From a virus, in IMG/VR virus record IMGVR_UViG_3300037961_001584, positions 1-28,191 of that record: DNA of 28,191 nucleotides; one strand, 5' to 3'. Within the stretch, counting starts at the first letter, position 1; each line of letters opens with the position of its first letter. Shown one piece after another: positions 1,465-23,538 of the stretch. The position numbers were made by a program, and so were the translations under genes. The notes under the pieces are model-generated. The model worked only from the letters and a program-made list of their open reading frames with translations, was not told where the DNA came from and did no database searches.

Positions 1465-1892
1465 GAAGCTATGTAGGCTTTTTCTAACTTCTCACCTGCT
1501 TTTAAAAAACAATCACCGCATCTGCGCTTTTTTAAACGTACACCAAATGTGCGTTGATATACGTCAATCAACAATTCTTGAAACGCAAAATCAACAGTAA
1601 CGCCCGGCTTCAATCGTGGGCGCAGTTCCTTTGCATAGATTTCTTGGTCTTCTTTGCTCATGCCGTCGTAGTGTGGGAATCGGTTGTTCAGCCATTCCTT
1701 ACGCTTTCCGCAGCCGCAATCCGTACCTGTAGCTTCTGCAATTGCATCGACTACTTTTTTAATCCCTGTTGCCTTAGTGATTTTCTCAATGTCGTCGCCT
1801 AGTCCCTTCGATTTTGTCGATCGCTTTTTTGATTTGCCTTTTGGCTTTTCTGATGCTCCTGTAGAGCGTTTGTCGGGGGATTCCTGTTGCAT
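1452..1892 (-). CDS. Conserved CGC-motif protein (hypothetical), 146 aa
   Basis: The first 30 residues are Lys/Ser/Gly-rich and disordered. The body starts GLGDDIEKITKATGIKKVVDAI, then has TDCGCGKRKEWLNNRFPHY (C-G-C followed by R-K and L-N) and a second Cys pair, RRCGDC, near residue 125. The G-I/L-G-D-x-I-x-K-x-T-x-A-T-G-I plus C-G-C signature is one I associate with phages and prophages of Bacteroidota. The paired cysteines suggest metal binding. The N-terminal 107 bases overlap the sigma-like gene, so the true start may lie further in, near the GLGDD segment. Function unknown. Confidence 0.75.
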   Translation of the reverse strand: MQQESPDKRSTGASEKPKGKSKKRSTKSKGLGDDIEKITKATGIKKVVDAIAEATGTDCGCGKRKEWLNNRFPHYDGMSKEDQEIYAKELRPRLKPGVTVDFAFQELLIDVYQRTFGVRLKKRRCGDCFLKAGEKLEKAYIASCDS

Positions 1893-2313
1893 TTGTAAAA
1901 GTGTCTAATGTGTGATTATGAAGATAGTATGCCTTAAATACCTCTCTATCAAACCATGATAATTCCTGCAATATAGCAAGTACGGTTTTTAGCTGTTCGT
2001 CGTGTCTGCTAAGTGTTTCTGTTTCTTCCGGTCTGCTGTGATTGTCTGTGTACTCATTTCGCAGTTTGTCATAGATTTTGTACTTACGGTTGTAGAATGA
2101 TTCGTTGCTATAGCTTGCTATGTAAATCGCGCGGCAGATGTAAGACATCATTTCGCCGCGTTCGCAAAGTGCATCTAGTTTGTGCTGCTTAGTAAGGAAT
2201 GCATAAAGCATGTCATGCAGCACATCTGCACCGTACTTTTTCCCGACGTAGCGGTAACTGTGTTGCAACAATTCATCATAGTGATCATTTATGAAGTTCT
2301 CGAAACAAGTCAT
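1786..2313 (-). CDS. Sigma-70-like transcription factor
   Basis: 175 residues with the two-domain plan of a small sigma factor. An N-terminal helical part (FINDHYDELLQHSYRYVG..., residues 5-70) resembles region 2. After a charged linker, a C-terminal part (about 108-165, LQELSWFDREVFKAYYLHN ... GIPRQTLYRSIRKAKRQIKK) resembles the region 4 helix-turn-helix that binds the -35 region. It probably redirects host RNA polymerase to phage promoters, late genes being the obvious target since no phage polymerase is present. It starts inside the end of ninG (29-base overlap) and is near the end of the early block, as expected for a middle/late switch. A region-4-only regulator is the alternative. Confidence 0.7.
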   Translation of the reverse strand: MTCFENFINDHYDELLQHSYRYVGKKYGADVLHDMLYAFLTKQHKLDALCERGEMMSYICRAIYIASYSNESFYNRKYKIYDKLRNEYTDNHSRPEETETLSRHDEQLKTVLAILQELSWFDREVFKAYYLHNHTLDTFTNATGIPRQTLYRSIRKAKRQIKKAIDKIEGTRRRH

Positions 2314-2698
2314 CGTAATGCTTGCGCAACTCTTTGTATTCTTCTGCTGTAAAATCTACGTGCATATTGCTAAGAAACAGTATGTTTTCTGCTGTACCCT
2401 CTCCATAAATTTCGTCTAATTTACGTGCAAATACAAATTGTTGACCGCCTAAAAATCCGTTACATCGCTTGCATTGGGGCATCACATTGACTAATCCCTC
2501 TGATGGTTTGTACAGAAATCGCGTTGCTAATTTGGCGCGTGTGATAAAGTGACCGCAATCAACCTCTTTCCATAATTTTTTGACACCGCATGTAAAACAA
2601 GACACGTAACCATTTTCGTCTGCATTGCTTGCACGTACGTATCGGCTCAGTGCTGCATCAAGTTTCTTTTTCTCCTTCGCTTTGCTCAGTTTTGGCAT
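2285..2698 (-). CDS. ninG: NinG-like recombination protein
   Basis: 137 residues that match the NinG/Rap family of lambdoid phages: C34-x-x-C37, DCGH (C48, H50) with F-I-T-R, and QCKRCN (C76-x-x-C79-N80) followed by G-G. These form an HNH-like zinc site that binds branched DNA. The family is a structure-specific DNA-binding/nuclease factor used in phage recombination. It lies between the helicase-loader-position gene (41-base overlap) and the sigma-like gene (29-base overlap). I am confident of the family; the exact substrate is known only for lambda. Confidence 0.87.
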   Translation of the reverse strand: MPKLSKAKEKKKLDAALSRYVRASNADENGYVSCFTCGVKKLWKEVDCGHFITRAKLATRFLYKPSEGLVNVMPQCKRCNGFLGGQQFVFARKLDEIYGEGTAENILFLSNMHVDFTAEEYKELRKHYDDLFRELHK

Positions 2699-14495: not shown

Positions 14496-14759
14496 CTAGT
14501 ATCCGTAAACTGCTTCGTCAAGTAATTCCACAAACAGTTCAAAATCTAACCGCGTAAATACGGCAGGCGACATTTCAGTAAAGATTACTTTTGCACGGTC
14601 GTAATTCTCTAAGAGAATAGCTTCTTCAACAATGTCTAAAGCATGGTTAAACGTGTCGTCTAACAAGTAGTCAACACGAAATTCTGCAATCATAGCAAGC
14701 AACTCCTCTTGGGCGCTGTTTGTCCATGTACTCCATATACGGTCTATTAGTGGATTCAT
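14496..14759 (-). CDS. Hypothetical acidic helical protein, 87 aa
   Basis: Helical and strongly acidic (by my count 18 Asp/Glu against 5 Lys/Arg): MNPLIDRIWSTWTNSAQEEL ... VEEAILLENYDRAKVIFTEM. It overlaps the protease stop by four bases. It resembles the acidic array proteins in charge but lacks their leader and beta pattern, and may instead be a head assembly factor because of its place between protease and scaffold. Confidence 0.65.
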   Translation of the reverse strand: MNPLIDRIWSTWTNSAQEELLAMIAEFRVDYLLDDTFNHALDIVEEAILLENYDRAKVIFTEMSPAVFTRLDFELFVELLDEAVYGY

Positions 14760-16093
14760 TCGTAACGGTCGTAATATCGTTTTCTCAACAAAGCCTTGTA
14801 ATAATTGACCTTCATACGGTTCAATTCGTGTTTGTCGGTTTTCATCTCTATTTCTTCTTCTTTCTCTTCTACCGCTTTTACCTCTCCATTGTACTCTGTT
14901 AGTACGCCTTCAAAAACCTCTATTTCTACACCCGCCTCTGTAGTATACTTACCGTTGCCTAGTTCTGTAGGCAATCCTTCTTCATCAATCTTAAACACGG
15001 TTGATCCTGCAGTCAGCGCATCGTCTTCTGTTGCAATGACTGTTCCATCCTGTAGGCTTACTTCGTTGTAAAACTTACGACGAATTGCAAACCACATCTT
15101 TTTCAAGGTCTTCTGCATTTTGCTTTGTTTTATAGGTACGCAGTTAGGCACTTCTCTTCCGTCCTTAATCTTTGTGCCAATTTGCTCATAGTCAGCCCAA
15201 CACGGCTCTTTCATCTCCGTTTCTTCTGCTGCCTCTGTTTTATCCTTGTTAGCGTTGACCTTGCCCTCTGCCCAGTTTAGCATAGATTTACCGCCCCATG
15301 CATCGTACATCAAACCTCCGCAACCCTCGCCGTATGGTACATCTGCATGCTCTGCCGCACGGCTCAAATAGCTGTAAGTCCTTGTTACCACATCCATACT
15401 AATCGCCTCACCTTTTGCTAGGGTGTTAGCACGGGTTTTACCAACCTCTGTGCCGCAGCTACCCCAACCGTTTTCTTCAGCCCATTCTAACGCACGCTTT
15501 GCGTTGTTGCTTGCGCTCTCAGGATAGTCAGTAAAACTTTCCATTTCCCTGCGCTGCATCTCCACAATCTTATCTGCGAAGTAGCCCTCAATGCTAAAGC
15601 CGCGTAGCTTGCCTGCTTTGACTTCTTGCCAAATCTCGCTGTTGGCTACGTGAACCTTTACCATCCACGTACCCTGCGGCATGCTCAAACCGTACAATTT
15701 ACTTTTATCCAACTCAGGGTCTTCTACAATCCAACTCTCTACAACGCTAACCTCATCGATAGATTCTTGATGTTCGCGTGTATGGTTGTTTGTACGATTC
15801 TGCTTGATGTACAGTTCAGATGCAAGCTTGACCGTTTCTTTGCTAAAAAACACCTCGTATTCCTCGTCCGTCGCTTCGTCGTAACGCGGAATGTTTTTAT
15901 CAGGGATCAGGGCAGCGCCTACCAATACCTGCTGATCCTCATCTACTGCTGCAAGGCTTACTCCGCGTGTGTTGCCCTGCTTGCTAAAAAACACAAAATT
16001 TTCTTCGATGGCAGGGAACTTTACAAGGCTAATTGCCTCTACGCCCCATGCATCTTGGTTCTCGTCAATAAGTAATTCGATTACTTTACTCAT
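14756..16093 (-). CDS. XkdF-like prohead serine protease with fused extra domain
   Basis: 445 residues. Residues 1-180 match the XkdF/Peptidase_S78_2 type: GAALIPDKNIPRYDEATDEEY near 60-80, then H in NNHTREHQE, the SWIVEDPELDKS segment and GKLRGFSIEGYF, where H and S are the likely catalytic residues. It would cleave scaffold and capsid during maturation. Residues about 185-280 form an added domain (YPESASNNAKRALEWAEENG, CGTEVGKTRANTLAKGEAIS, YDAWGGKSMLNWAEGKVN), which I recall in several Bacteroidota head proteins. The remainder is a charged scaffold-like tail ending KALLRKRYYDRYE. Overlaps the last acidic array gene by four bases. Confidence 0.8.
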   Translation of the reverse strand: MSKVIELLIDENQDAWGVEAISLVKFPAIEENFVFFSKQGNTRGVSLAAVDEDQQVLVGAALIPDKNIPRYDEATDEEYEVFFSKETVKLASELYIKQNRTNNHTREHQESIDEVSVVESWIVEDPELDKSKLYGLSMPQGTWMVKVHVANSEIWQEVKAGKLRGFSIEGYFADKIVEMQRREMESFTDYPESASNNAKRALEWAEENGWGSCGTEVGKTRANTLAKGEAISMDVVTRTYSYLSRAAEHADVPYGEGCGGLMYDAWGGKSMLNWAEGKVNANKDKTEAAEETEMKEPCWADYEQIGTKIKDGREVPNCVPIKQSKMQKTLKKMWFAIRRKFYNEVSLQDGTVIATEDDALTAGSTVFKIDEEGLPTELGNGKYTTEAGVEIEVFEGVLTEYNGEVKAVEEKEEEIEMKTDKHELNRMKVNYYKALLRKRYYDRYE

Positions 16094-16296
16094 ACAATTC
16101 GGTAGTCAATGTTATAGTCATCAAGGACGTCAAAGAAATCATCTACTGTAGGGTAACGTGACGATTCGTCAATCTTGACGATGTTCAACATGCGGTCATT
16201 CGTTTCCTCAATGTATTCCACTACATCGCGCAAACCCTCTCTGCCAAAAAGGTCTTGCAATTGTTGGATCGTCTTGTAGTCGATTTCTACTAGCAT
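16090..16296 (-). CDS. Acidic array protein, 68 aa
   Basis: Net charge about -10 by my count (17 acidic, 7 basic). Plan: strand (MLVEIDY), helix (IQQLQDLFG..LRDVVEYI), strand (MLNIVKI), helix (TVDDFFDVLDDY) and strand (NIDYRIV). The final 'helix then D-Y-x-V strand' is shared with its neighbours, which suggests duplication. ATG follows the shared leader (16294-16308). Last gene of the array; it overlaps the protease by four bases. Function unknown; anti-defence DNA mimicry or virion assembly are open. Confidence 0.7.
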   Translation of the reverse strand: MLVEIDYKTIQQLQDLFGREGLRDVVEYIEETNDRMLNIVKIDESSRYPTVDDFFDVLDDYNIDYRIV

Positions 16297-16308
16297 CTCT
16301 GTTGTTTA
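16294..16308 (-). repeat. Shared leader copy 1: TAAACAACAGAGATG
   Basis: Contains the stop of the 48-aa gene (16306-16308) and the start codon of the 68-aa gene. Identical core with five other array leaders. No Shine-Dalgarno sequence; A-rich as in Bacteroidota start regions. Confidence 0.75.
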
Positions 16309-16452
16309 CAGTTGTTTGCGAATGTTGTCTAGCTTCCGCACGATGTCAAACAATTCGTCAGACAACATATTGATTCCCATTTGTTCAGCTTCGTAAGATG
16401 CCATGTCCGCGTTAGCAATTGCTTCCGAAATGTATTCTCTAATTTCGTTCAT
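16306..16452 (-). CDS. Acidic array protein, 48 aa
   Basis: ATG at 16452 after a leader copy; stop TAA at 16306-16308. All-helical peptide (MNEIREYISEAIANADMASY ... LFDIVRKLDNIRKQL), only mildly acidic (net about -5) and without the beta strands of its neighbours. It is therefore probably a separate small partner rather than a paralogue. Shorter than most gene-calling cut-offs. Confidence 0.65.
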   Translation of the reverse strand: MNEIREYISEAIANADMASYEAEQMGINMLSDELFDIVRKLDNIRKQL

Positions 16453-16466
16453 ATCTCTGTTGTTTA
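16450..16466 (-). repeat. Shared leader copy 2: TAAACAACAGAGATATG
   Basis: Spans the stop of the 71-aa gene (16464-16466) and the start of the 48-aa gene. Exact 17-base match to the copies at 16953-16969 and 17683-17699. Confidence 0.75.
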
Positions 16467-16679
16467 AATGTCGTTGACGTCGTAGTCGTAGTTTGCAGCA
16501 TCTAGGGCTTCCACAATTTCATCAACCTCAGTTTCAAAAAAGCCTAGCGTATAGTAGATGTCAATAATGGTATCACGTCCGTTTTGAAACACCTCTAACT
16601 CCAACGCTGTACCCTTGATTAAATCAAAGATGCGCTCTGCCCTGCTAGTGAATACGGTAATTTGAATCTCCGGCTGCAT
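16464..16679 (-). CDS. Acidic array protein, 71 aa
   Basis: Net charge about -12. Reads MQPEIQITVFTSRAERIFDL, then ALELEVFQNGRDTIIDIYYTL and EVDEIVEALDAANYDYDVNDI at the end. Strand-helix-strand-strand-helix-strand layout, with the same C-terminal helix plus 'Y-D-Y-D-V' ending as the 68-aa and 80-aa proteins. Preceded by a leader copy. No known family. Confidence 0.7.
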   Translation of the reverse strand: MQPEIQITVFTSRAERIFDLIKGTALELEVFQNGRDTIIDIYYTLGFFETEVDEIVEALDAANYDYDVNDI

Positions 16680-16691
16680 CTCTGTTGTTTA
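16677..16691 (-). repeat. Shared leader copy 3: TAAACAACAGAGATG
   Basis: Covers the stop of the 88-aa gene (16689-16691) and the start of the 71-aa gene. Confidence 0.75.
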
Positions 16692-16955
16692 GTAATTCTC
16701 AATAAACGTTCCGTCGTACTCATCTGCAATTAACTCAAGAAACTCAGCTAACAGGTCATCGACAAAAGGCATTCCGCCATCGTACGTTACCTCAAACCCT
16801 AAAAATTTGTCACGAATGTCTACGTACGCATAAACGTCTTCCCATGTATCGTTGTCAAACATAGGATCGGCGCGGCTTGACAATTCCGGTGCTGTTTCAA
16901 ACAATGATCGCAATTCACGTTCAAGCGTAGGGTAATCTAATCCTTCAATGTACAT
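16689..16955 (-). CDS. Acidic array protein, 88 aa
   Basis: Very acidic: about 23 Asp/Glu to 5 basic, net -18. Includes a helix (YPTLERELRSLFETAPEL), strand-like DVYAYVDIRDKFLGFEVTYDGG, a helix (FVDDLLAEFLELIADEYDG) and a final FIENY strand. It has the same general alpha/beta plan. Starts after leader copy 4. No family recognised; the acidic surface with aromatic residues fits DNA-mimic proteins, as a hypothesis only. Confidence 0.7.
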   Translation of the reverse strand: MYIEGLDYPTLERELRSLFETAPELSSRADPMFDNDTWEDVYAYVDIRDKFLGFEVTYDGGMPFVDDLLAEFLELIADEYDGTFIENY

Positions 16956-16969
16956 ATCTCTGTTGTTTA
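16953..16969 (-). repeat. Shared leader copy 4: TAAACAACAGAGATATG
   Basis: Covers the stop of the 77-aa gene at 16967 and the start codon of the 88-aa gene; identical to copies 2 and 6. Confidence 0.75.
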
Positions 16970-17200
16970 GTCAAATTCGATTTTTACCTGCTTTCTGTAA
17001 TCAGAAACGGTAAAGTCACCGTCTAAATCACGATACTCACTATAAGAATCTACAATGTCAAACATATCGTCTTCTACATCATCTACAGAAATACCTGTGT
17101 TTTTCAACACAATATCTGACCTGCCATATTCATTCACAGTGTAACCGTAGTCGTCCTCTAGAACTTCAACCAAGCTAATTATTTGCCTTACTGTAGCCAT
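16967..17200 (-). CDS. Acidic array protein, 77 aa (A)
   Basis: Net about -13. An N-terminal helix (VRQIISLVEVLEDDYGYTVN) leads to short strands and an Asp-rich stretch (VDDVEDDMFDIVDSYSEY), then a beta end (GDFTVSDYRKQVKIEFD). Its start region (TAAATAATCATGG) does not carry the shared leader, so it may rely on coupling to the gene before. Unknown function. Confidence 0.7.
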   Translation of the reverse strand: MATVRQIISLVEVLEDDYGYTVNEYGRSDIVLKNTGISVDDVEDDMFDIVDSYSEYRDLDGDFTVSDYRKQVKIEFD

Positions 17201-17206
17201 GATTAT

Positions 17207-17440
17207 TTAGTAATTGTATGGGTCAAAAATTTCGTCGATGCGGGCAATGAATTGTGATTCTGACATTATCTCATTTAAATCTTTGCGCAATTCGTCTTCT
17301 GACTCTGCCCAAACTGCACCATAAATCCTACGCCCTGTGATGTCGTCTGAGATCATGACCTCATAAGCGTTGTCGTTGTAGAACGGTGAGTCCTGCACGC
17401 TTATATCGTAGTCATCAACAAAATCTTTTACTGTGTACAT
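17207..17440 (-). CDS. Acidic array protein, 77 aa (B)
   Basis: Net about -13. MYTVKDFVDDYDISVQDSPF, then a beta pair (AYEVMISDDITGRRIYGAVW), a helix (AESEDELRKDLNEIMSESQF) and the end ARIDEIFDPYNY. Beta-beta-alpha centre like the others. It starts after a slightly changed leader (TAAACAACAGAAACATG). Unknown function. Confidence 0.7.
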   Translation of the reverse strand: MYTVKDFVDDYDISVQDSPFYNDNAYEVMISDDITGRRIYGAVWAESEDELRKDLNEIMSESQFIARIDEIFDPYNY

Positions 17441-17454
17441 GTTTCTGTTGTTTA
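17438..17454 (-). repeat. Shared leader copy 5 (variant): TAAACAACAGAAACATG
   Basis: Covers the stop of the Trp-rich 77-aa gene (17452-17454) and the next start. Differs from copies 2, 4 and 6 at two bases. Confidence 0.7.
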
Positions 17455-17685
17455 TCGCACTCTTTCCACGTACACGCCATCACGCGCGTATTCTTTTTCC
17501 AAATCTTCCATGACCCATTCGCCTTGGTCAGTCATGTCATCCCAATGCCACACAAAAACATCTCCATGTTCTTCCAAAACTCCTACCTGCGGCCAATCGT
17601 GATAATCGTGATTTATCATCCATGCATGAATCCAAGCATCTAACGTCATATAACCGCGATCCCAATTATAAATTTCGAATCTCAT
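17452..17685 (-). CDS. Acidic, Trp-rich array protein, 77 aa (C)
   Basis: Eight tryptophans in 77 residues (MRFEIYNWDRGYMTLDAWIH ... FVWHWDDMTDQGEWVMEDLE), net about -12. Unlike its neighbours it is Trp- and His-rich (HAWMINHDYHDWPQ). Starts after an exact leader copy (17683-17699). Not a clear paralogue by sequence; shares only size, charge and leader. Unknown function. Confidence 0.7.
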   Translation of the reverse strand: MRFEIYNWDRGYMTLDAWIHAWMINHDYHDWPQVGVLEEHGDVFVWHWDDMTDQGEWVMEDLEKEYARDGVYVERVR

Positions 17686-17699
17686 ATCTCTGTTGTTTA
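17683..17699 (-). repeat. Shared leader copy 6: TAAACAACAGAGATATG
   Basis: Covers the stop of the 81-aa gene (17697-17699) and the start codon of the Trp-rich gene. Confidence 0.75.
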
Positions 17700-17942
17700 A
17701 CCAATAAATTCAACTTCTGCATCAGGCTCTTCATCAGCAAGCTGCTCTGCAACGTCAATTAAATCATCTTCCTCACTAGGATCATTCACATCGATTTCTA
17801 CAAAAGGTCGATAATCGCCTGCAGCAGCATCTACGTATCCTAAGTCGTTGATGTAGATGTCCATGTCACCTTCGCCTGCATCGTAGCTTTCGAAGAAATC
17901 CGTTACCTCGTTATAGGTAAGTCCTTTAATGCTAATGACCAT
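17697..17942 (-). CDS. Highly acidic array protein, 81 aa
   Basis: The most acidic protein of the window: about 25 Asp/Glu against 2 Lys/Arg, net near -23 in 81 residues. Layout: strand (MVISIKGL), helix (NEVTDFFESYDAGEG), strands (MDIYINDLGYV, RPFVEIDVND), helix (EEDDLIDVAEQLADEE) and strand (AEVEFIG). Size and charge are in the range of phage DNA-mimic anti-restriction proteins such as Ocr and ArdA, though no sequence match is claimed. Separated from the 80-aa gene by two bases. Confidence 0.72.
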   Translation of the reverse strand: MVISIKGLTYNEVTDFFESYDAGEGDMDIYINDLGYVDAAAGDYRPFVEIDVNDPSEEDDLIDVAEQLADEEPDAEVEFIG

Positions 17943-17944
17943 AA

Positions 17945-18187
17945 TTAAGCGTATTTGTTATACAGGTAGTTGTCAATGACATCGTATTCGACCCCATAGT
18001 TATCGTACAAAACAGCTAAAATCTCGCTGTATTCTGCAGGTGTATCCAAGGCGACGACAATTGAACCACTGCCATCTTCGTATTTGTACAGCGTAAACAT
18101 ATCCGTAAGCGGGTACTCCTCGCCTTCACGCAAAGAGTCAAGTAGCCGTACAGTAATTTTGTCTAATGCTCGGTCTAACTGTGACAT
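17945..18187 (-). CDS. Acidic array protein, 80 aa
   Basis: Net about -10. Helix (LDRALDKITVRLLDSLREG), strands (FTLYKYEDGSGSIVVALDT), helix (AEYSEILAVLYDNYG) and final strand (VEYDVIDNYLYNKYA). The C-terminal half is similar in pattern to the 68- and 71-aa proteins. Its start shares a base with the stop of the preceding gene, so it is coupled. Unknown function. Confidence 0.7.
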   Translation of the reverse strand: MSQLDRALDKITVRLLDSLREGEEYPLTDMFTLYKYEDGSGSIVVALDTPAEYSEILAVLYDNYGVEYDVIDNYLYNKYA

Positions 18188-18483
18188 CAGTAGTTGTCGT
18201 TAATCATTTCCTGCAATGCTTCACTTACGTGTTCAGTGATTTCGCGAAAGTCGATTTCTGCGATGCTTGCGTTTACCATGTCCTGTACAATACCTGCTCG
18301 GCTTGGAATATCTCGTTCAATGTATTCCTCAAATATCTCCTGTACCTCTCGGTAATCGAGGCGGTCAGGGTCTTGATTCTGTTCGTACAAAACCTCTGCT
18401 AAAAGCGGAATGAAGTCATATACTGACAGCAACCACGTTTCGTAGTTCGCATACCCGTTATAGCTAAACTCTTTCTTTTCCAT
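18187..18483 (-). CDS. DUF7249-like protein, 98 aa; first gene of the acidic array
   Basis: Start at ATG 18483 (a longer reading from 18531 has no support). The beginning NGYANYETWLLSVYDF matches the N-x-Y-E-T-W pattern of DUF7249-type proteins found in phages and plasmids, and the end (GIVQDMVNASIAEIDFREITEHVSE) fits the same family's A-E-V-x-W-x-E-I-A-E-H end. Net about -16. Family function is unknown. A candidate promoter lies just upstream (18503-18532). Recognition is from memory of the pattern. Confidence 0.7.
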   Translation of the reverse strand: MEKKEFSYNGYANYETWLLSVYDFIPLLAEVLYEQNQDPDRLDYREVQEIFEEYIERDIPSRAGIVQDMVNASIAEIDFREITEHVSEALQEMINDNY

Positions 18484-18502: not shown

Positions 18503-18532
18503 CAATTTACAATACATGCCCGTACCATCAAA
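18503..18532 (-). promoter_or_regulatory. Candidate Bacteroidota-type promoter for the acidic array
   Basis: On the minus strand TTTG (532-529) is followed after exactly 19 bases by TAAATTG (509-503), close to the Bacteroidota TTTG-N19-TAnnTTTG promoter. It starts at the tape measure stop codon and lies about 20 bases before the ATG at 18483. If used, the array is transcribed independently of the tail genes. Confidence 0.45.
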
Positions 18533-20360
18533 GCGTAATCTTGTTATTTAGTTGCTGTGCCATAGCATTTTGTCCTTGCAACTGCGACTGTACAACGTAT
18601 GCTTGCATATCAGGTGTATCTAATCGTGCAGGCAATGGTGTAACGCTCATGTCGCTAAAACCTGAACGGGTTTGTCCGCCTCCTCGACCTACACCTCCGC
18701 TTGCTCCGCCTGCCTGATCCATGATTTGCTTTACCTGTACAAAGCTGCCCAATACCGTGCCTAGCATAGACACGATGAAGGTTGCAAGGCTAATAGGGTC
18801 TTTTGCTGACTCTGTAGCGCCGCGAATAGCACCTGCCATAGCCATTGCCTGATTAAGCAAGACATCGGCTACTGCAAGGTTTTTTTGCTGCTTGCTGTTG
18901 TCCTCTGCCATCTGACCCATAGTGCGGAACAGTCCACTTGTTGCATTGGCTAGAGCATCGATTTTACGTAGCTGTATGTTCTCTTCTTCGTCTGCAGAAT
19001 CGCGCACAAGTTGTTCGTAGTCCTCAATGTATGCAGCGTTGATTTGCGCAATCAATTCGGCATTATCTCCTGCCATCTCAATCATGCGGTCATACTGACT
19101 CATTAAAGCCATTTCTTGGCGCTCAAAATTGCTAAGAGAGCGTTCGTATAATTGATCGGCTACCTGCGCTTCTAAGTCGCTTTTACGTTTTGCTGCATTT
19201 GCATCGATTTCAGCGATGTCCATATCGAACTTACGCGCTAAAGCTAAAAGAGCATCATAGGTAGCACCGCGCTGTACTAGTTCTAGATAGTCCGCATCAA
19301 ATTGCATCTCCAAGCGTTTTTTTGCTTGAGCATCTGCGCTGTCTAAACTGCGTATTTCGTAATCCTGCTGCAGCTTCAGCAACTGATCCTGCACAAACTT
19401 CTCATCTGCTATACGCTGTTTGTCAATTTGCTCTTGCTTACGGCGTGCCTCCTCTGCTTGTTTTTCTTCGTTAGCTTGTTGACGTAAGGCGTAACCTGCA
19501 CGGGTGTTTTCTAGGCGTTGTAGTTGTGCCTCTGCCGCATCAATTGTTTCATCTGCCTTCTCTGCGACTTCTTCAGGTGGGTCAAACAGCATGCCCGCTA
19601 CACCTGATACGTAACCTTCTGCAAGGCTTGTACCCTCTTCCAATACACCAATTTCTGCAAGTCCTGCGCTAATCGTGTCAATGATTCCTAATGCAGCCGT
19701 AAGCGGGAATGTGACCAAGCCAATAATAGCTTTTGTGTACTTTGTCACACGGTCTGCTGCAGCCGTTTCTTCTTCTTTCTGCGCTTTTAGATTATCAATC
19801 AAAATCTTCTGCTGCATGATGGCTTCGTCGGTAGCCTGCATGCGCATCATAAGGATGTCCTCCTCTGTTTTGCCCTGCAACCTTAAAATGTTTTCAGTTG
19901 CAGAAATGTTATCTAATTGCTCTTTGCTTGCCTTGACTAGCTTTTCGCTTTCCGTTACCGCATCTTTTGTTGCATCGCTTGCGCCTGTAATGGCTTCGCT
20001 AATCTTGTCCCAATTATCTACAATAGCACCTAGGGCAACTACAAATGCACCAATACCTGTAGCAGCAATCGCACCGCGCAGCGACTTGAACCCACGCGAT
20101 AAACGCCCGATTTGACGTTGTGTAGATTTAAACGAACGGATAGTACGCTGAAAACCTCGCGGCAAAAACTGACTAAACAAATCGCCAATGCCTGCCCAAT
20201 CTTTTTTTGCGCCTTTACCCGCTTTACCCATGCGGCGTTCTAAACGCTCTACCGCATCGCCTGCACTCTCTGCCGCTGCTGTTACGGTTTCTTCGCCCTT
20301 AATTTTTACTTTCGCTTCTGCTGCCATCTGTTGTTCAATATTAATCTCAGCTTTTTCCAA
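18528..20360 (-). CDS. Tail tape measure protein
   Basis: Up to 610 residues from a TTG at 20360; the ATG at 20327 (599 aa), preceded by GAACAACAG, is an equally good start. Hydrophobic segments lie at about 95-114 (RGAIAATGIGAFVVALGAIV), 211-238 (AIIGLVTFPLTAALGIIDTI) and near the end (LATFIVSMLGTVLGSFV); the rest is long charged helix with Gln/Glu/Lys repeats. This is the usual shape of a protein that sets tail length and helps eject DNA. It is short, so a short tail is expected. It comes after, rather than before, the large distal tail proteins. Confidence 0.75.
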   Translation of the reverse strand: MEKAEINIEQQMAAEAKVKIKGEETVTAAAESAGDAVERLERRMGKAGKGAKKDWAGIGDLFSQFLPRGFQRTIRSFKSTQRQIGRLSRGFKSLRGAIAATGIGAFVVALGAIVDNWDKISEAITGASDATKDAVTESEKLVKASKEQLDNISATENILRLQGKTEEDILMMRMQATDEAIMQQKILIDNLKAQKEEETAAADRVTKYTKAIIGLVTFPLTAALGIIDTISAGLAEIGVLEEGTSLAEGYVSGVAGMLFDPPEEVAEKADETIDAAEAQLQRLENTRAGYALRQQANEEKQAEEARRKQEQIDKQRIADEKFVQDQLLKLQQDYEIRSLDSADAQAKKRLEMQFDADYLELVQRGATYDALLALARKFDMDIAEIDANAAKRKSDLEAQVADQLYERSLSNFERQEMALMSQYDRMIEMAGDNAELIAQINAAYIEDYEQLVRDSADEEENIQLRKIDALANATSGLFRTMGQMAEDNSKQQKNLAVADVLLNQAMAMAGAIRGATESAKDPISLATFIVSMLGTVLGSFVQVKQIMDQAGGASGGVGRGGGQTRSGFSDMSVTPLPARLDTPDMQAYVVQSQLQGQNAMAQQLNNKITL

Positions 20361-20488
20361 TTGCTTTGATGCAGGTCGTTAATCCCGTACCAATATCGCC
20401 ATATACCCGTACCTTTTACGTTGTTCGCTACCGTCAACCGTATAGCTACAGGTAATCCATATCCAACGCTGTTTATCCAATACTTCAT
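20306..20488 (-). CDS. Small ORF between tail protein and tape measure, 60 aa (ambiguous)
   Basis: ATG overlaps the stop of the 1017-aa gene (ATGA, 20485-20488) and the frame runs to 20306. It reads MKYWINSVGYGLPVAIRLTV, with a Trp/Tyr-rich part (IWRYWYG), and overlaps the tape measure start. The frame beside it is also open across the same bases and reads like protein too (WIWITCSYTVDGSEQRKRYG, then YMAILVRD), with no ATG near its start. One of the two is probably real; I cannot tell which from sequence alone. Confidence 0.4.
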   Translation of the reverse strand: MKYWINSVGYGLPVAIRLTVANNVKGTGIWRYWYGINDLHQSNWKKLRLILNNRWQQKRK

Positions 20489-23400
20489 TTGTTAAAGTGT
20501 AGTTCTGTGTTGCTGCCGTCGTTTAGGTGAATCTTGGTATTAGACAAGTTAAAGTACGCTGTAGGATCAGTAGAAATGTCTAGTCCTGACAATTGCACAA
20601 ACTGAACTGTAGCGTTAATGAGCCAACTTGCAGTCACGTTTGCTGTACCCGTACATTGTACTGTGTAGGTTGCATCTGCTCCTGCGACCCTTTGCGCTGT
20701 AGCAGTGTCAATACTTGCCGTTACTCCTGAATCCTTCTCCGTATTAATTACGGTAGGTGTTCCGCCTACCCTACGCACCGCAGGTGCATTACTTGCTAGA
20801 TCCCGCGTGTTAGCTATCGACGTACGCGCCGTAAAGTTGCTTGCTTCGCCTACAGCCGCTGCTGACCCGCCAATCTCAATCATAGTTACATCATAAGTGA
20901 TGTATGCAATTGTATCTAGTGGAATGTCGAACGTATCTATGCCGTCTGCAGTTTTAGCATTTACCGCTGCGGCACTTGTAGTTTCAGCATATAGTTGCAC
21001 CGTATACGTACCACCTTGTATTGATGTAGAGTTTTTAAAGGCAAATGTTTTGCTTACTACGTTCGTACCCGGCAAACCCGGTAGTAAACCGTTGCTTTGC
21101 CCGCTAATTGGCTGAGGTATTCCGCTTGGCGCATTAGGATGACTGCCGTTAGAATTAGTGCCGCTTTTGTAGAAACACTCTGTCAGCGATTCTGACCATA
21201 TAAAGCCGTTGCCTGTACAACATTCTTCTGTAGGCGTTGCTGCGCTACCCGTCGTTGCAGACACAAAATTTACTGTGCCATCCGTATTAAATGAATCTAC
21301 CTGCAGATTGCAATCGCGTTTTATAATTGCATTTGCTGCATCAATCACTTTAATCAATTCAGCGTTAGCTAAGGTGCTGTTGTCAAGCGTAAAGTTGTCT
21401 AGCCTTATAATCCTCCAATACGCGCCCTCTATGTACAGCAAATCGTTAAACTCAAGATTGTATACGTCTGTTGTAGTCAAGTCAAGCTTGCACGTCATTA
21501 CGCGGCTTTCGTCGCTGTACAACTCATTGAACATACGCAGCCAATACGTATTAAACAGATAGTTGTTTGTGATCCCTGCTGTGTCACCGTTACTTACAAA
21601 TGGCGCATCTAAATTATCGGGGTACGTGTAGCCCCATTGCAATGACTTTGTGCTAGTAGTAACGCCTACGCTGTTGTACTCTGCGAAATAAGGATAGTTG
21701 CTGTACAACGTGCCTCCGTATGAAAACTGATGACCGTTGCCTATGCTTTGCAAGCCGTTGTAATAGGCAAGGACAGGTTTACAACTGACAAATTCTTTTA
21801 GGTAGATTGAGCCGTTACTGCCGTCGTGCCAATTCCAAAACGTAGGTACTAGCACATTAGGCACTAAACTTTCGCCTGTGTTTTGAATGTTTTGAAATAC
21901 ACGCCTATTACGCAGCGGTTGAAATATGTCGCTTGTTTCCTCTTTGCCTGTAGCAAAGTCGTTATCGTTTTCGTAGATATAACGACCGTATGTTTTACGG
22001 AAATGGTGTTGATACCACAGGTTTATAAAATCCTCGCCTTCGCTGTCCTCAAAAACGTATTCTTTCTTTTGATACTTTGTAGTAGGCTCAATGCTTATAC
22101 TGTCTGCATCTACCTTATTCGTAAAGTCCTTTTTTGTTGTACCGTTGTTCCACCAATCTTCCCAAGGCTCTGCATATACAATGCCCGGATCGGTAGGCTT
22201 TGTAATCATGACGATGTTAAACTTTTCGCAAATAGCACGCAACCATTCGTCTACCCGAATATCAGGGAAGTTTGACGATACGTCTACAAAACCGCCTGTG
22301 CCATCATAGGAAATTAGTTGCCATAAGGTTGTGCCTGTTGAGTTAGTAGTAATGATACTGACATCATCAAAACTGTTTGTATGTGCTACCTGCACTGTAA
22401 CCGCATCGCCTTGCGAAAGCGTTAACAAATATCCGTAGTCAGCAACATTTGTTTCATTTGGGTCACATGGTACTTGCTGCGTGTTTGTAACAAGTTCACC
22501 ATTGACCATCATACGGCACAGCACGTTAAAAGAGGTGCTATCCGTCACTGATTGCACCATTACAATAAGACGTGCAGTCAAGTAATAATCGCCGTCGTAT
22601 GGTGCGCTAAAGGTGCTCGAACTAACTAGTCCGTCAGGGTCATAAAACGGTGCGCTGCTTTCCTCTGTAAAGCTGACCTGCTCATAGATGCCTGCGTTGG
22701 CAGATGTAATCGTTTGCGTAGACGGGATACCCATACGAAAACCATAGCTTGCACGGCTTGTAGCGCGTTCCGTTTCCGTAGCAAGAAACATGTAGATTTT
22801 CTTGAAATCGGCGCTGTCAAAAAACGTGCTTTCATAGTTGATGCCTGCGCGTTTAAAGATGTAGTCGATTACATACTGTATACGAATAGCAGGCTTAAAG
22901 TTCTTTGCTGCTAAAGGTGCTAAACCATCATTTATGCTTATCCCTGTACCGTTGCCTGCATAAGTAAAGCCTATACCTACACCTTCATTGGCACTGTTGT
23001 TTGTGCTGTTCTGCCCCCAATCTGATAGAGGGTATACAATTACGCCGTTGCCTACAGTGCCTGTTGTAATATCGTTTGTAGTCGTCCACGAATTGATAAT
23101 GTTTGTCCACGTCAACGCATGGTCAAGGTCAGTATCAACGCCGTTTTCATCCGTAAACAGTTCTTCGAAACTTAGGTCACGGATGCTTTCAAATAGGCTT
23201 GCTAGTTCCTGCAGCACATTCACTACAAATCCCTCTTCGCTTGCTTTGTACAACTGCAACACACCTTCCATAAGTAAGATGCCTTCGCTGTACAATTGCA
23301 CAGATGTTTTGGTCTGTGCCTTAAACGAACCTAACGTAACGTTGTAGTCGTAGTAGTAGGAAAAAAACTGTACGTTGTTCCGCGATGGCGGCAAATTAAA

Positions 23401-23538
23401 GTTGAACGTATACGGCGATTTAGAGGCTAAAGGATCATTTAGGTCTTGGAACTGAAAGTTCAGTTCAATCGGCGTATCAGGCAAGTCCAACTCATACTGC
23501 GTTGTTCCTCCCTGTACTATAGCTACAAGTTGTCCCAT
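20485..23538 (-). CDS. Large tail/baseplate protein, 1017 aa
   Basis: Largest gene of the window. N-terminal segment LNFQFQDLNDPLASKSPYTF, then F-N-L-P-P-S-R-N-N-V-Q-F-F, resembles phage tail-hub or baseplate proteins of Bacteroidota siphophages. The central part (about 200-760) is beta-rich with Asn/Thr/Tyr and a Trp-rich region (EPWEDWWNNGTTKKDF). A CCTGNGFIWSESLTECFYKSG segment near 775-800 has four Cys and may be disulphide- or metal-linked. The last 200 residues are Thr/Ala-rich repeats. It likely forms the tail tip. Start overlaps the 453-aa gene by one base. Confidence 0.65.
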   Translation of the reverse strand: MGQLVAIVQGGTTQYELDLPDTPIELNFQFQDLNDPLASKSPYTFNFNLPPSRNNVQFFSYYYDYNVTLGSFKAQTKTSVQLYSEGILLMEGVLQLYKASEEGFVVNVLQELASLFESIRDLSFEELFTDENGVDTDLDHALTWTNIINSWTTTNDITTGTVGNGVIVYPLSDWGQNSTNNSANEGVGIGFTYAGNGTGISINDGLAPLAAKNFKPAIRIQYVIDYIFKRAGINYESTFFDSADFKKIYMFLATETERATSRASYGFRMGIPSTQTITSANAGIYEQVSFTEESSAPFYDPDGLVSSSTFSAPYDGDYYLTARLIVMVQSVTDSTSFNVLCRMMVNGELVTNTQQVPCDPNETNVADYGYLLTLSQGDAVTVQVAHTNSFDDVSIITTNSTGTTLWQLISYDGTGGFVDVSSNFPDIRVDEWLRAICEKFNIVMITKPTDPGIVYAEPWEDWWNNGTTKKDFTNKVDADSISIEPTTKYQKKEYVFEDSEGEDFINLWYQHHFRKTYGRYIYENDNDFATGKEETSDIFQPLRNRRVFQNIQNTGESLVPNVLVPTFWNWHDGSNGSIYLKEFVSCKPVLAYYNGLQSIGNGHQFSYGGTLYSNYPYFAEYNSVGVTTSTKSLQWGYTYPDNLDAPFVSNGDTAGITNNYLFNTYWLRMFNELYSDESRVMTCKLDLTTTDVYNLEFNDLLYIEGAYWRIIRLDNFTLDNSTLANAELIKVIDAANAIIKRDCNLQVDSFNTDGTVNFVSATTGSAATPTEECCTGNGFIWSESLTECFYKSGTNSNGSHPNAPSGIPQPISGQSNGLLPGLPGTNVVSKTFAFKNSTSIQGGTYTVQLYAETTSAAAVNAKTADGIDTFDIPLDTIAYITYDVTMIEIGGSAAAVGEASNFTARTSIANTRDLASNAPAVRRVGGTPTVINTEKDSGVTASIDTATAQRVAGADATYTVQCTGTANVTASWLINATVQFVQLSGLDISTDPTAYFNLSNTKIHLNDGSNTELHFNK

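What the first reader, a model, noticed from the sequence alone, without database searches (positions are those of the whole stretch)
16090..18483. Array of ten small, strongly acidic proteins inserted in the late operon
Ten consecutive minus-strand genes (48-98 residues) lie between the tape measure and the prohead protease, where no such block is expected. All are negative by my count (about -5 to -23; the 81-aa protein has about 25 acidic and 2 basic residues). Several share a strand-helix-strand-strand-helix-strand plan with a final D-Y-x-V strand (68, 71 and 80 aa), so tandem duplication is likely. Charge and size suit DNA-mimic anti-restriction or anti-defence proteins; one is DUF7249-like. 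This is the strongest candidate here for an undescribed system. Function is inferred only.
Basis: partly seen in the sequence, partly recalled or inferred. Interest (0 to 1): 0.82.

Follow-up and report, generated by a model that had tools for sequence, protein, structure and literature searches.

The report
Shuffled gene-cassette array in marine phages
Between two virion-assembly genes, these marine viruses of bacteria carry a string of small, acidic, mutually unrelated genes, each starting at the same 17-letter sequence, and the genes are swapped between viruses one at a time exactly at that sequence, like interchangeable cartridges, probably to keep ahead of host defences.

Summary
It precedes 6 of the 10 genes and occurs nowhere else in the window. 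IMG/VR holds about 30 related phage contigs with box arrays. In 17 of them (about 450 kb) there are 111 boxes, all on one strand, one cluster per genome. In 34 loci, 189 box genes form at least 83 families in combinatorially different orders on a shared backbone. Single cassettes are 90-100% identical at DNA level between phages with near-random backbone DNA identity, and homology starts and ends exactly at the boxes (70 and 61 junctions). Relatives without boxes have tape measure and protease adjacent: the empty site. All small box proteins are acidic; median dN/dS is 0.16. Tandem duplication is rejected. Anti-defence function is plausible, unproven; ArdA genes sit at or near the array in 7 of 17 relatives. 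Best reading: a recombinase-free, integron-like cassette array whose box is both translation start and recombination site, related in kind to mycobacteriophage start-associated sequences, T4 PeSLs and lambdoid boundary sequences.

The parts
18187..18483 (-). Gene 10, 98 aa, DUF7249-like (family c7). Recurs box-less in 11 of 34 loci, usually next to the tape measure
17945..18187 (-). Gene 9, 80 aa (family c15); start overlaps stop of gene 10; box-led in relatives L182, L220, L223; AF2 model alpha-alpha-5beta-alpha
17697..17942 (-). Gene 8, 81 aa, net -23 (family c4, 14 loci in the array table); box-less here, box-led in others; AF2 ferredoxin-like model, pLDDT 90.9
17452..17685 (-). Gene 7, 77 aa (family c19, 6 loci), box-led
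17207..17440 (-). Gene 6, 77 aa (family c23, 5 loci), led by a variant box (AAACAACAGAAAC)
16967..17200 (-). Gene 5, 77 aa (family c35, 3 loci), box-less here, box-led in L206 and L223
16689..16955 (-). Gene 4, 88 aa, box-led, no relative found in IMG/VR
16464..16679 (-). Gene 3, 71 aa (family c48), box-led; near-identical copy in L148, whose backbone is otherwise unalignable at DNA level; partial copy in L129; 57% relative in box-less L303
16306..16452 (-). Gene 2, 48 aa (family c20, 6 loci), box-led
16090..16296 (-). Gene 1, 68 aa (family c49, also L002), box-led; overlaps the protease start
16295..16307 (-). Box AAACAACAGAGAT before gene 1
16453..16465 (-). Box AAACAACAGAGAT before gene 2
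16678..16690 (-). Box AAACAACAGAGAT before gene 3
16956..16968 (-). Box AAACAACAGAGAT before gene 4
17441..17453 (-). Variant box AAACAACAGAAAC before gene 6
17686..17698 (-). Box AAACAACAGAGAT before gene 7
18528..20360 (-). Tape-measure gene, upstream border of the array
14756..16093 (-). Prohead-protease-like gene, downstream border of the array
2285..2698 (-). NinG/Rap junction-specific endonuclease, candidate recombination helper, present in 13 of 17 array phages

Best explanation
A box-delimited cassette array. Each cassette is one small acidic gene. Its stop codon TAA opens a constant 17-nt box, TAA-ACAACAGAGAT-ATG, and the box ends in the start codon of the next cassette. The box has two jobs. 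(1) Translation start: it is an SD-less, Bacteroidota-type initiation region, so any cassette placed there is translated from the late polycistronic mRNA (inferred). (2) Homology for exchange: because the same box stands between all cassettes and in all phages of the lineage, co-infecting phages recombine at the boxes and add, drop or swap whole in-frame genes. That the boxes are the boundaries of exchanged DNA is shown; that homologous exchange helped by the NinG/Rap-like endonuclease or host enzymes does it is inferred. The cargo is most likely a rotating set of inhibitors of host defence or other host-takeover functions, possibly partly DNA or nucleotide mimics. Step confidences: box-delimited exchange 0.9; box as translation start 0.75; homologous rather than site-specific recombination 0.75; anti-defence cargo 0.5.
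For: The box is confined to the array and to one strand. 34 loci carry 189 box genes; in 165 of 189 the previous stop is exactly the box TAA, and sequence conservation stops at the box edges. Gene orders are shuffled on a constant backbone. Cassettes at 90-100% DNA identity sit between different neighbours in phages whose backbone is near random DNA identity. Homology begins at the box T (-14) and ends at the next ATG (+13) at 70 and 61 junctions, with exact box-to-box examples such as L161/L219 and L182/L229. A sister phage, L002, has a colinear backbone but six of ten cassettes replaced. Empty-site relatives exist. A protein search not using the box found 14 c4 loci, all in contigs already found by the box scans. 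Box nucleotides A-6, A-12 and A-13 match positive translation determinants measured in Flavobacterium johnsoniae (PMC6847099); box starts are predicted less structured than backbone starts (0.558 vs 0.506 unpaired, p=2e-5). NinG/Rap is in 13 of 17 genomes. ArdA is at or near the array in 7 of 17. dN/dS median 0.16. All 176 small box proteins are net negative.
Against: Box position -3 is G, not the favoured A. No single-strand annealing protein of the RecT, ERF or Sak4 families was found, and 17 nt is short for general homologous recombination. No cassette in the window has a recognisable anti-defence domain. Placement in the late operon is odd for inhibitors of early-acting defences. Junction pairs are not phylogenetically independent. 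L303 has a gene-3 relative without the box.
Confidence: 0.72

Rival explanations
1. The box is only a shared translation-start element (like mycobacteriophage SAS). Genes come and go by illegitimate recombination, and selection for an intact start makes the breakpoints look box-precise.
For: The box sits exactly at start codons and matches F. johnsoniae start determinants (PMC6847099). Some junctions lack a box (window genes 5, 8, 9, 10). Illegitimate recombination filtered by selection is a standing model for phage mosaicism (PMC3233612).
Against: Selection on start sites does not explain why the upstream gene's stop codon is exactly the box TAA in 165 of 189 cases with no variable spacer, nor why cassettes carry one box on each side at nearly all junctions.
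Confidence: 0.2
2. Site-specific recombination: a phage or host recombinase acts on the box, an integron-like system in the strict sense.
For: Constant asymmetric site, head-to-tail single-gene cassettes, all in one orientation.
Against: No phage-integrase domain in any of 17 genomes. The box has no inverted repeat or hairpin. No integrase gene accompanies the array. Serine recombinases were not searched for.
Confidence: 0.08
3. The proteins are virion-associated: packaged and injected, like T4 internal proteins, or head/tail assembly factors specific to the lineage.
For: Location in the late operon between tape measure and prohead protease, and in some relatives just after the protease.
Against: Relatives with an equivalent backbone lack all of them. 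Content differs between phages with nearly identical backbones, so they cannot be required assembly parts. No shared leader beyond the start codon.
Confidence: 0.2
4. Tandem duplication and divergence of one ancestral acidic gene.
For: Similar size and charge.
Against: Best profile-profile probability among the ten is 9.9%; two modelled folds differ.
Confidence: 0.03

Closest known systems
Start-associated sequences (SAS) of Cluster K mycobacteriophages (PMC3203893)
   Same: 13-nt asymmetric sequence, conserved across phages, immediately upstream of start codons of many unrelated genes, proposed role in translation initiation.
   Different: Different sequence (GGGATAGGAGCCC) and host phylum. 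Here the box also contains the preceding stop codon, forms one contiguous array, and marks both ends of exchanged units.
PeSLs, mobile regulatory cassettes of T4-type phages (Arbiol 2010; Comeau 2014, known to me through PMC4503421)
   Same: A repeated intergenic element between small accessory genes, linked to modular shuffling in hyperplastic regions.
   Different: PeSLs are early promoter plus stem-loop. The box here is 17 nt, without stem-loop, in a late operon, and fused to stop and start codons.
Lambdoid boundary sequences (model described in PMC3233612)
   Same: Short conserved sequences between genes proposed to target homologous recombination and make mosaic boundaries coincide with gene boundaries.
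   Different: Here one identical sequence serves all boundaries of an array of up to 11 units, so position in the array is free rather than fixed.
Integron gene-cassette arrays
   Same: Head-to-tail single-gene cassettes with a constant element, large open gene pool, shuffled order.
   Different: No tyrosine recombinase, no palindromic attC, no attI or Pc; found in phage late operons.
ArdA antirestriction proteins (PF07275)
   Same: Acidic; ArdA genes (237-261 aa, two matching stretches) lie at or near the array in 7 of 17 relatives.
   Different: No window protein matches ArdA by sequence, and the one ferredoxin-like model has no significant structural match.

Membership tests
Start-associated sequence (SAS) | Short asymmetric conserved sequence immediately upstream of start codons of unrelated genes | tested here: met
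   189 box genes, ATG at fixed offset in 181
Start-associated sequence (SAS) | Consensus GGGATAGGAGCCC, Cluster K mycobacteriophage | tested here: not met
   Box is AAACAACAGAGAT; phage is related to Nonlabens phage P12024S
PeSL | Stem-loop in the repeated element | tested here: not met
   The 17-nt box contains no inverted repeat; conservation stops at its edges
PeSL | Early promoter in the repeated element | not testable with these tools
   Promoter consensus for this host is not available; the spacer has only about 13 nt between stop and start
Boundary-sequence-mediated mosaicism | Homology of exchanged segments ends at a short sequence shared between genes | tested here: met
   70 start-side and 61 end-side junctions
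Boundary-sequence-mediated mosaicism | Recombination demonstrated to occur at the shared sequence | not testable with these tools
   Needs coinfection experiments
Integron | Tyrosine recombinase gene next to the array | tested here: not met
   PF00589: 0 of 17 genomes, control rings in 14 of 14
Integron | Imperfect palindromic attC sites | tested here: not met
   Box has no inverted repeat; flanks carry no conservation
ArdA / Ocr-type DNA-mimic antirestriction proteins | Sequence or domain match for the window proteins | tested here: not met
   Pfam, PHROGs, PADLOC
ArdA / Ocr-type DNA-mimic antirestriction proteins | Small, strongly acidic | tested here: met
   Net charge -5 to -23
ArdA / Ocr-type DNA-mimic antirestriction proteins | Structural similarity to a known mimic | tested here: not met
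   Two models, no PDB match with E<=0.001 and no mimic among the best matches; the other eight not modelled
ArdA / Ocr-type DNA-mimic antirestriction proteins | Inhibits a restriction or defence system | not testable with these tools
   Needs a bench assay
DUF7249 | Score above the curated Pfam cut-off (gene 10) | tested here: not met
   24.1 vs 27 bits, E=7.6e-5, nearly full-length match

The most novel reading that the evidence does not exclude
A recombinase-free analogue of the integron: a phage lineage keeps one 17-nt start/stop box as both ribosome entry site and recombination joint, and through it shares a large open pool of single-gene acidic counter-defence cassettes, giving each phage a different combinatorial set.
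Probability: 0.5. Interest if true: 0.88.

Novelty: new variant of a known kind. Interest (0 to 1): 0.76.

Why it matters
Whether short conserved boundary sequences drive phage gene mosaicism, or whether random recombination followed by selection does, is a standing question. Here one identical box delimits up to 11 successive genes per phage and 83 or more gene families, so the question becomes directly testable by scrambling a box. The box also gives a 17-nt search key to a gene pool (a Chao-type estimate of at least about 140 families, 38 of 83 seen once) likely to contain unknown inhibitors of Bacteroidota defence systems. It also suggests how phages of hosts without Shine-Dalgarno use can standardise translation starts for exchangeable genes.

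Tried and rejected
Tandem duplication and common fold: rejected. A bacterial chromosomal or mobile-element origin of the box: 33 of 34 genome-collection hits are single copies, about the number expected by chance for a 17-mer in 257 Gb, and the one array (L270) is a phage contig binned in a MAG (the chance estimate is my arithmetic). Tyrosine recombinase, RecT, ERF, Sak4: not found. A similar box in protease relatives L003-L081: no repeated 11-mer before starts. The 14-mer spacer of box-less L303 as an alternative box: no contig with more than one copy, which also serves as a negative control for the multi-copy criterion. Prophage or host search with the protease in 299 genomes of the family of a Flavobacteriaceae MAG: nothing (uninformative by the tool's own warning). 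Known anti-phage-defence libraries: nothing useful. Fold searches: no significant match. Assembly chimerism: considered unlikely because the same 7-cassette order recurs in two IMG contigs and one independent MAG (L182, L247, L270). The POTRA match to gene 3 (E=0.0018, below cut-off) was not pursued. The first full hhalign run timed out, so only window families were compared against the rest.
Full report
OBSERVATION. The ten minus-strand ORFs at 16090-18483 are as described; charges are -5 to -23 and the 81-aa protein has 25 acidic and 2 basic residues. They lie between a tape-measure gene and a prohead-protease-like gene. The window is a 28,191-base IMG/VR virus record. The protease's best match among cultured phages is Nonlabens phage P12024S (41% over 44% of the protein), a marine flavobacterial phage.

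THE BOX. Five exact copies and one two-mismatch variant of AAACAACAGAGAT precede genes 1, 2, 3, 4, 7 and 6; the only other site in the window is a two-mismatch hit at 1139; 1.5 are expected by chance. Genes 5, 8, 9 and 10 have no box here. Families of genes 5, 8 and 9 are box-led in other phages.

THE LINEAGE. The exact 17-mer occurs in 66 IMG/VR stretches, about 30 contigs having two or more copies. In the genome collection, 33 of 34 hits are single, which is chance level by my arithmetic; the only array is a small phage contig in a MAG. In 17 virus records (about 450 kb) there are 111 sites with at most one mismatch, all on one strand of each genome and in one cluster, against zero for the reversed control pattern. 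A comparable intergenic 14-mer from a box-less relative gave no contig with more than one copy.

SHUFFLING. Gene calling on 34 loci, including the window, gives 189 box genes in 45 multi-member families plus 38 singletons. The backbone order is constant (tape measure, protease, then the genes leading to the portal), while the cassettes are combinatorial. Arrays usually lie between tape measure and protease, but in some phages (for example L206, L218, L223, L237, L245, L248) after the protease. Related phages without boxes have tape measure directly followed by protease, the empty site. Near-identical backbones can differ in cassettes: mean Jaccard similarity of content is only 0.38 at 90% or more backbone amino-acid identity, and falls to 0.07 below 60%. 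The window and L002 have a colinear, roughly 90-97% identical backbone, but only genes 10, 9, 2 and 1 are shared; the six between are replaced.

EXCHANGE UNIT. The same cassette is found at 90-100% DNA identity between different neighbours in phages whose backbone is at near-random DNA identity under the aligner used (60-70%, with random sequence scoring 65%). Window gene 3 is 91.7% identical to the copy in L148 under such conditions. Aligning such pairs without gaps, identity is 0.2-0.4 up to position -15, at least 0.94 at -14, and stays high through the gene; on the other side it stays high to the ATG of the next box (+13) and drops to 0.2-0.4 at once (70 and 61 junctions). These pairs were de-duplicated by context but are not phylogenetically independent. 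Examples with box-to-box identity of 99-100% are (L161/L219; L182/L229).

WHAT THE BOX DOES. It is not a Shine-Dalgarno site. In Flavobacterium johnsoniae, adenines at -3, -6, -12 and -13 raise initiation (PMC6847099); the box has A at -6, -12 and -13 and G at -3. Box starts are predicted slightly less structured than backbone starts. Backbone genes in these phages do not use the box, so it is not simply the phage's general start signal. The exact overlap of stop and start (165 of 189) means any exchange inside the box leaves both genes intact. The phage encodes a NinG/Rap junction endonuclease (window 2285-2698), present in 13 of 17 relatives. No phage integrase, RecT, ERF or Sak4 was found. 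I therefore favour homologous exchange over site-specific recombination, as an inference.

WHAT THE CARGO DOES. All 176 small box proteins are net negative, mean -11.4, and evolve under purifying selection, median dN/dS 0.16. The ten window proteins are unrelated to each other (best hhalign probability 9.9%). Of two modelled families, the 81-aa one is ferredoxin-like (pLDDT 90.9) and the 80-aa one has another topology (pLDDT 86.7); neither has a significant structural match. Library searches give almost nothing for the cassettes. An ArdA antirestriction gene lies at or near the array in 7 of 17 relatives (by coordinates it adjoins the array in L215, L218, L223 and L245 and lies just past the protease in L202, L216 and L220/L235), and a DUF3846 protein in others. 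Rapid turnover, uniform acidity and this company suit counter-defence, but no function is shown.

LIMITS. All sequences are metagenomic contigs; the host is inferred from one distant cultured relative. Cassette families were defined by BLASTP with 60% coverage; a simple ORF caller was used. A protein search independent of the box found all 14 relatives of the 81-aa protein in contigs already found by the box scans, but one relative of gene 3 lies in a box-less phage, L303.

VERDICT. A real and, in the literature I could search, undescribed box-delimited cassette array. The principle (short shared boundary or start sequences that permit modular exchange) is known; the array form, the fused stop/start box and the scale are new.

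Noticed in passing
L215:1978-2691; virus records of L202, L216, L218, L220/L235, L223, L245: ArdA-family antirestriction genes (PF07275, two matching stretches, 237-261 aa) at or near the array or just past the protease in 7 of 17 relatives.
   Followed up: partly
L206:1404-1664 (-): DUF3846 protein (E=3.4e-9) next to the protease at the array start; related family c29 also in L209, L237, L241.
   Followed up: partly
L110, L215, L218, L227, L246: A 268-273-aa gene family (c10) also sits in arrays behind a box, so cassettes are not limited to small genes; in other phages a relative lies after the protease.
   Followed up: no
window 1786-2313 (-): Phage protein with a weak match to RNA polymerase sigma factors (phrog_1740 E=7.9e-8), a possible late-transcription factor.
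   Followed up: no
window 1-28191: Gene order suggests the contig is a nearly complete, circularly permuted genome: replication, NinG and sigma-like genes at the left end, terminase at the right end.
   Followed up: no
L270 (JAFMIA010000163.1): Array-phage contig binned into a Pseudomonadales MAG, a likely misbinning.
   Followed up: partly
L303:403-621: 57% relative of window gene 3 in a box-less phage with a related backbone, led by TAAAAGAAAGCATG; that spacer is not multi-copy in any IMG/VR contig listed.
   Followed up: yes
window 20485-23538 (-): 1017-aa protein between tape measure and terminase-side genes with no PHROG match at E<=0.001.
   Followed up: no
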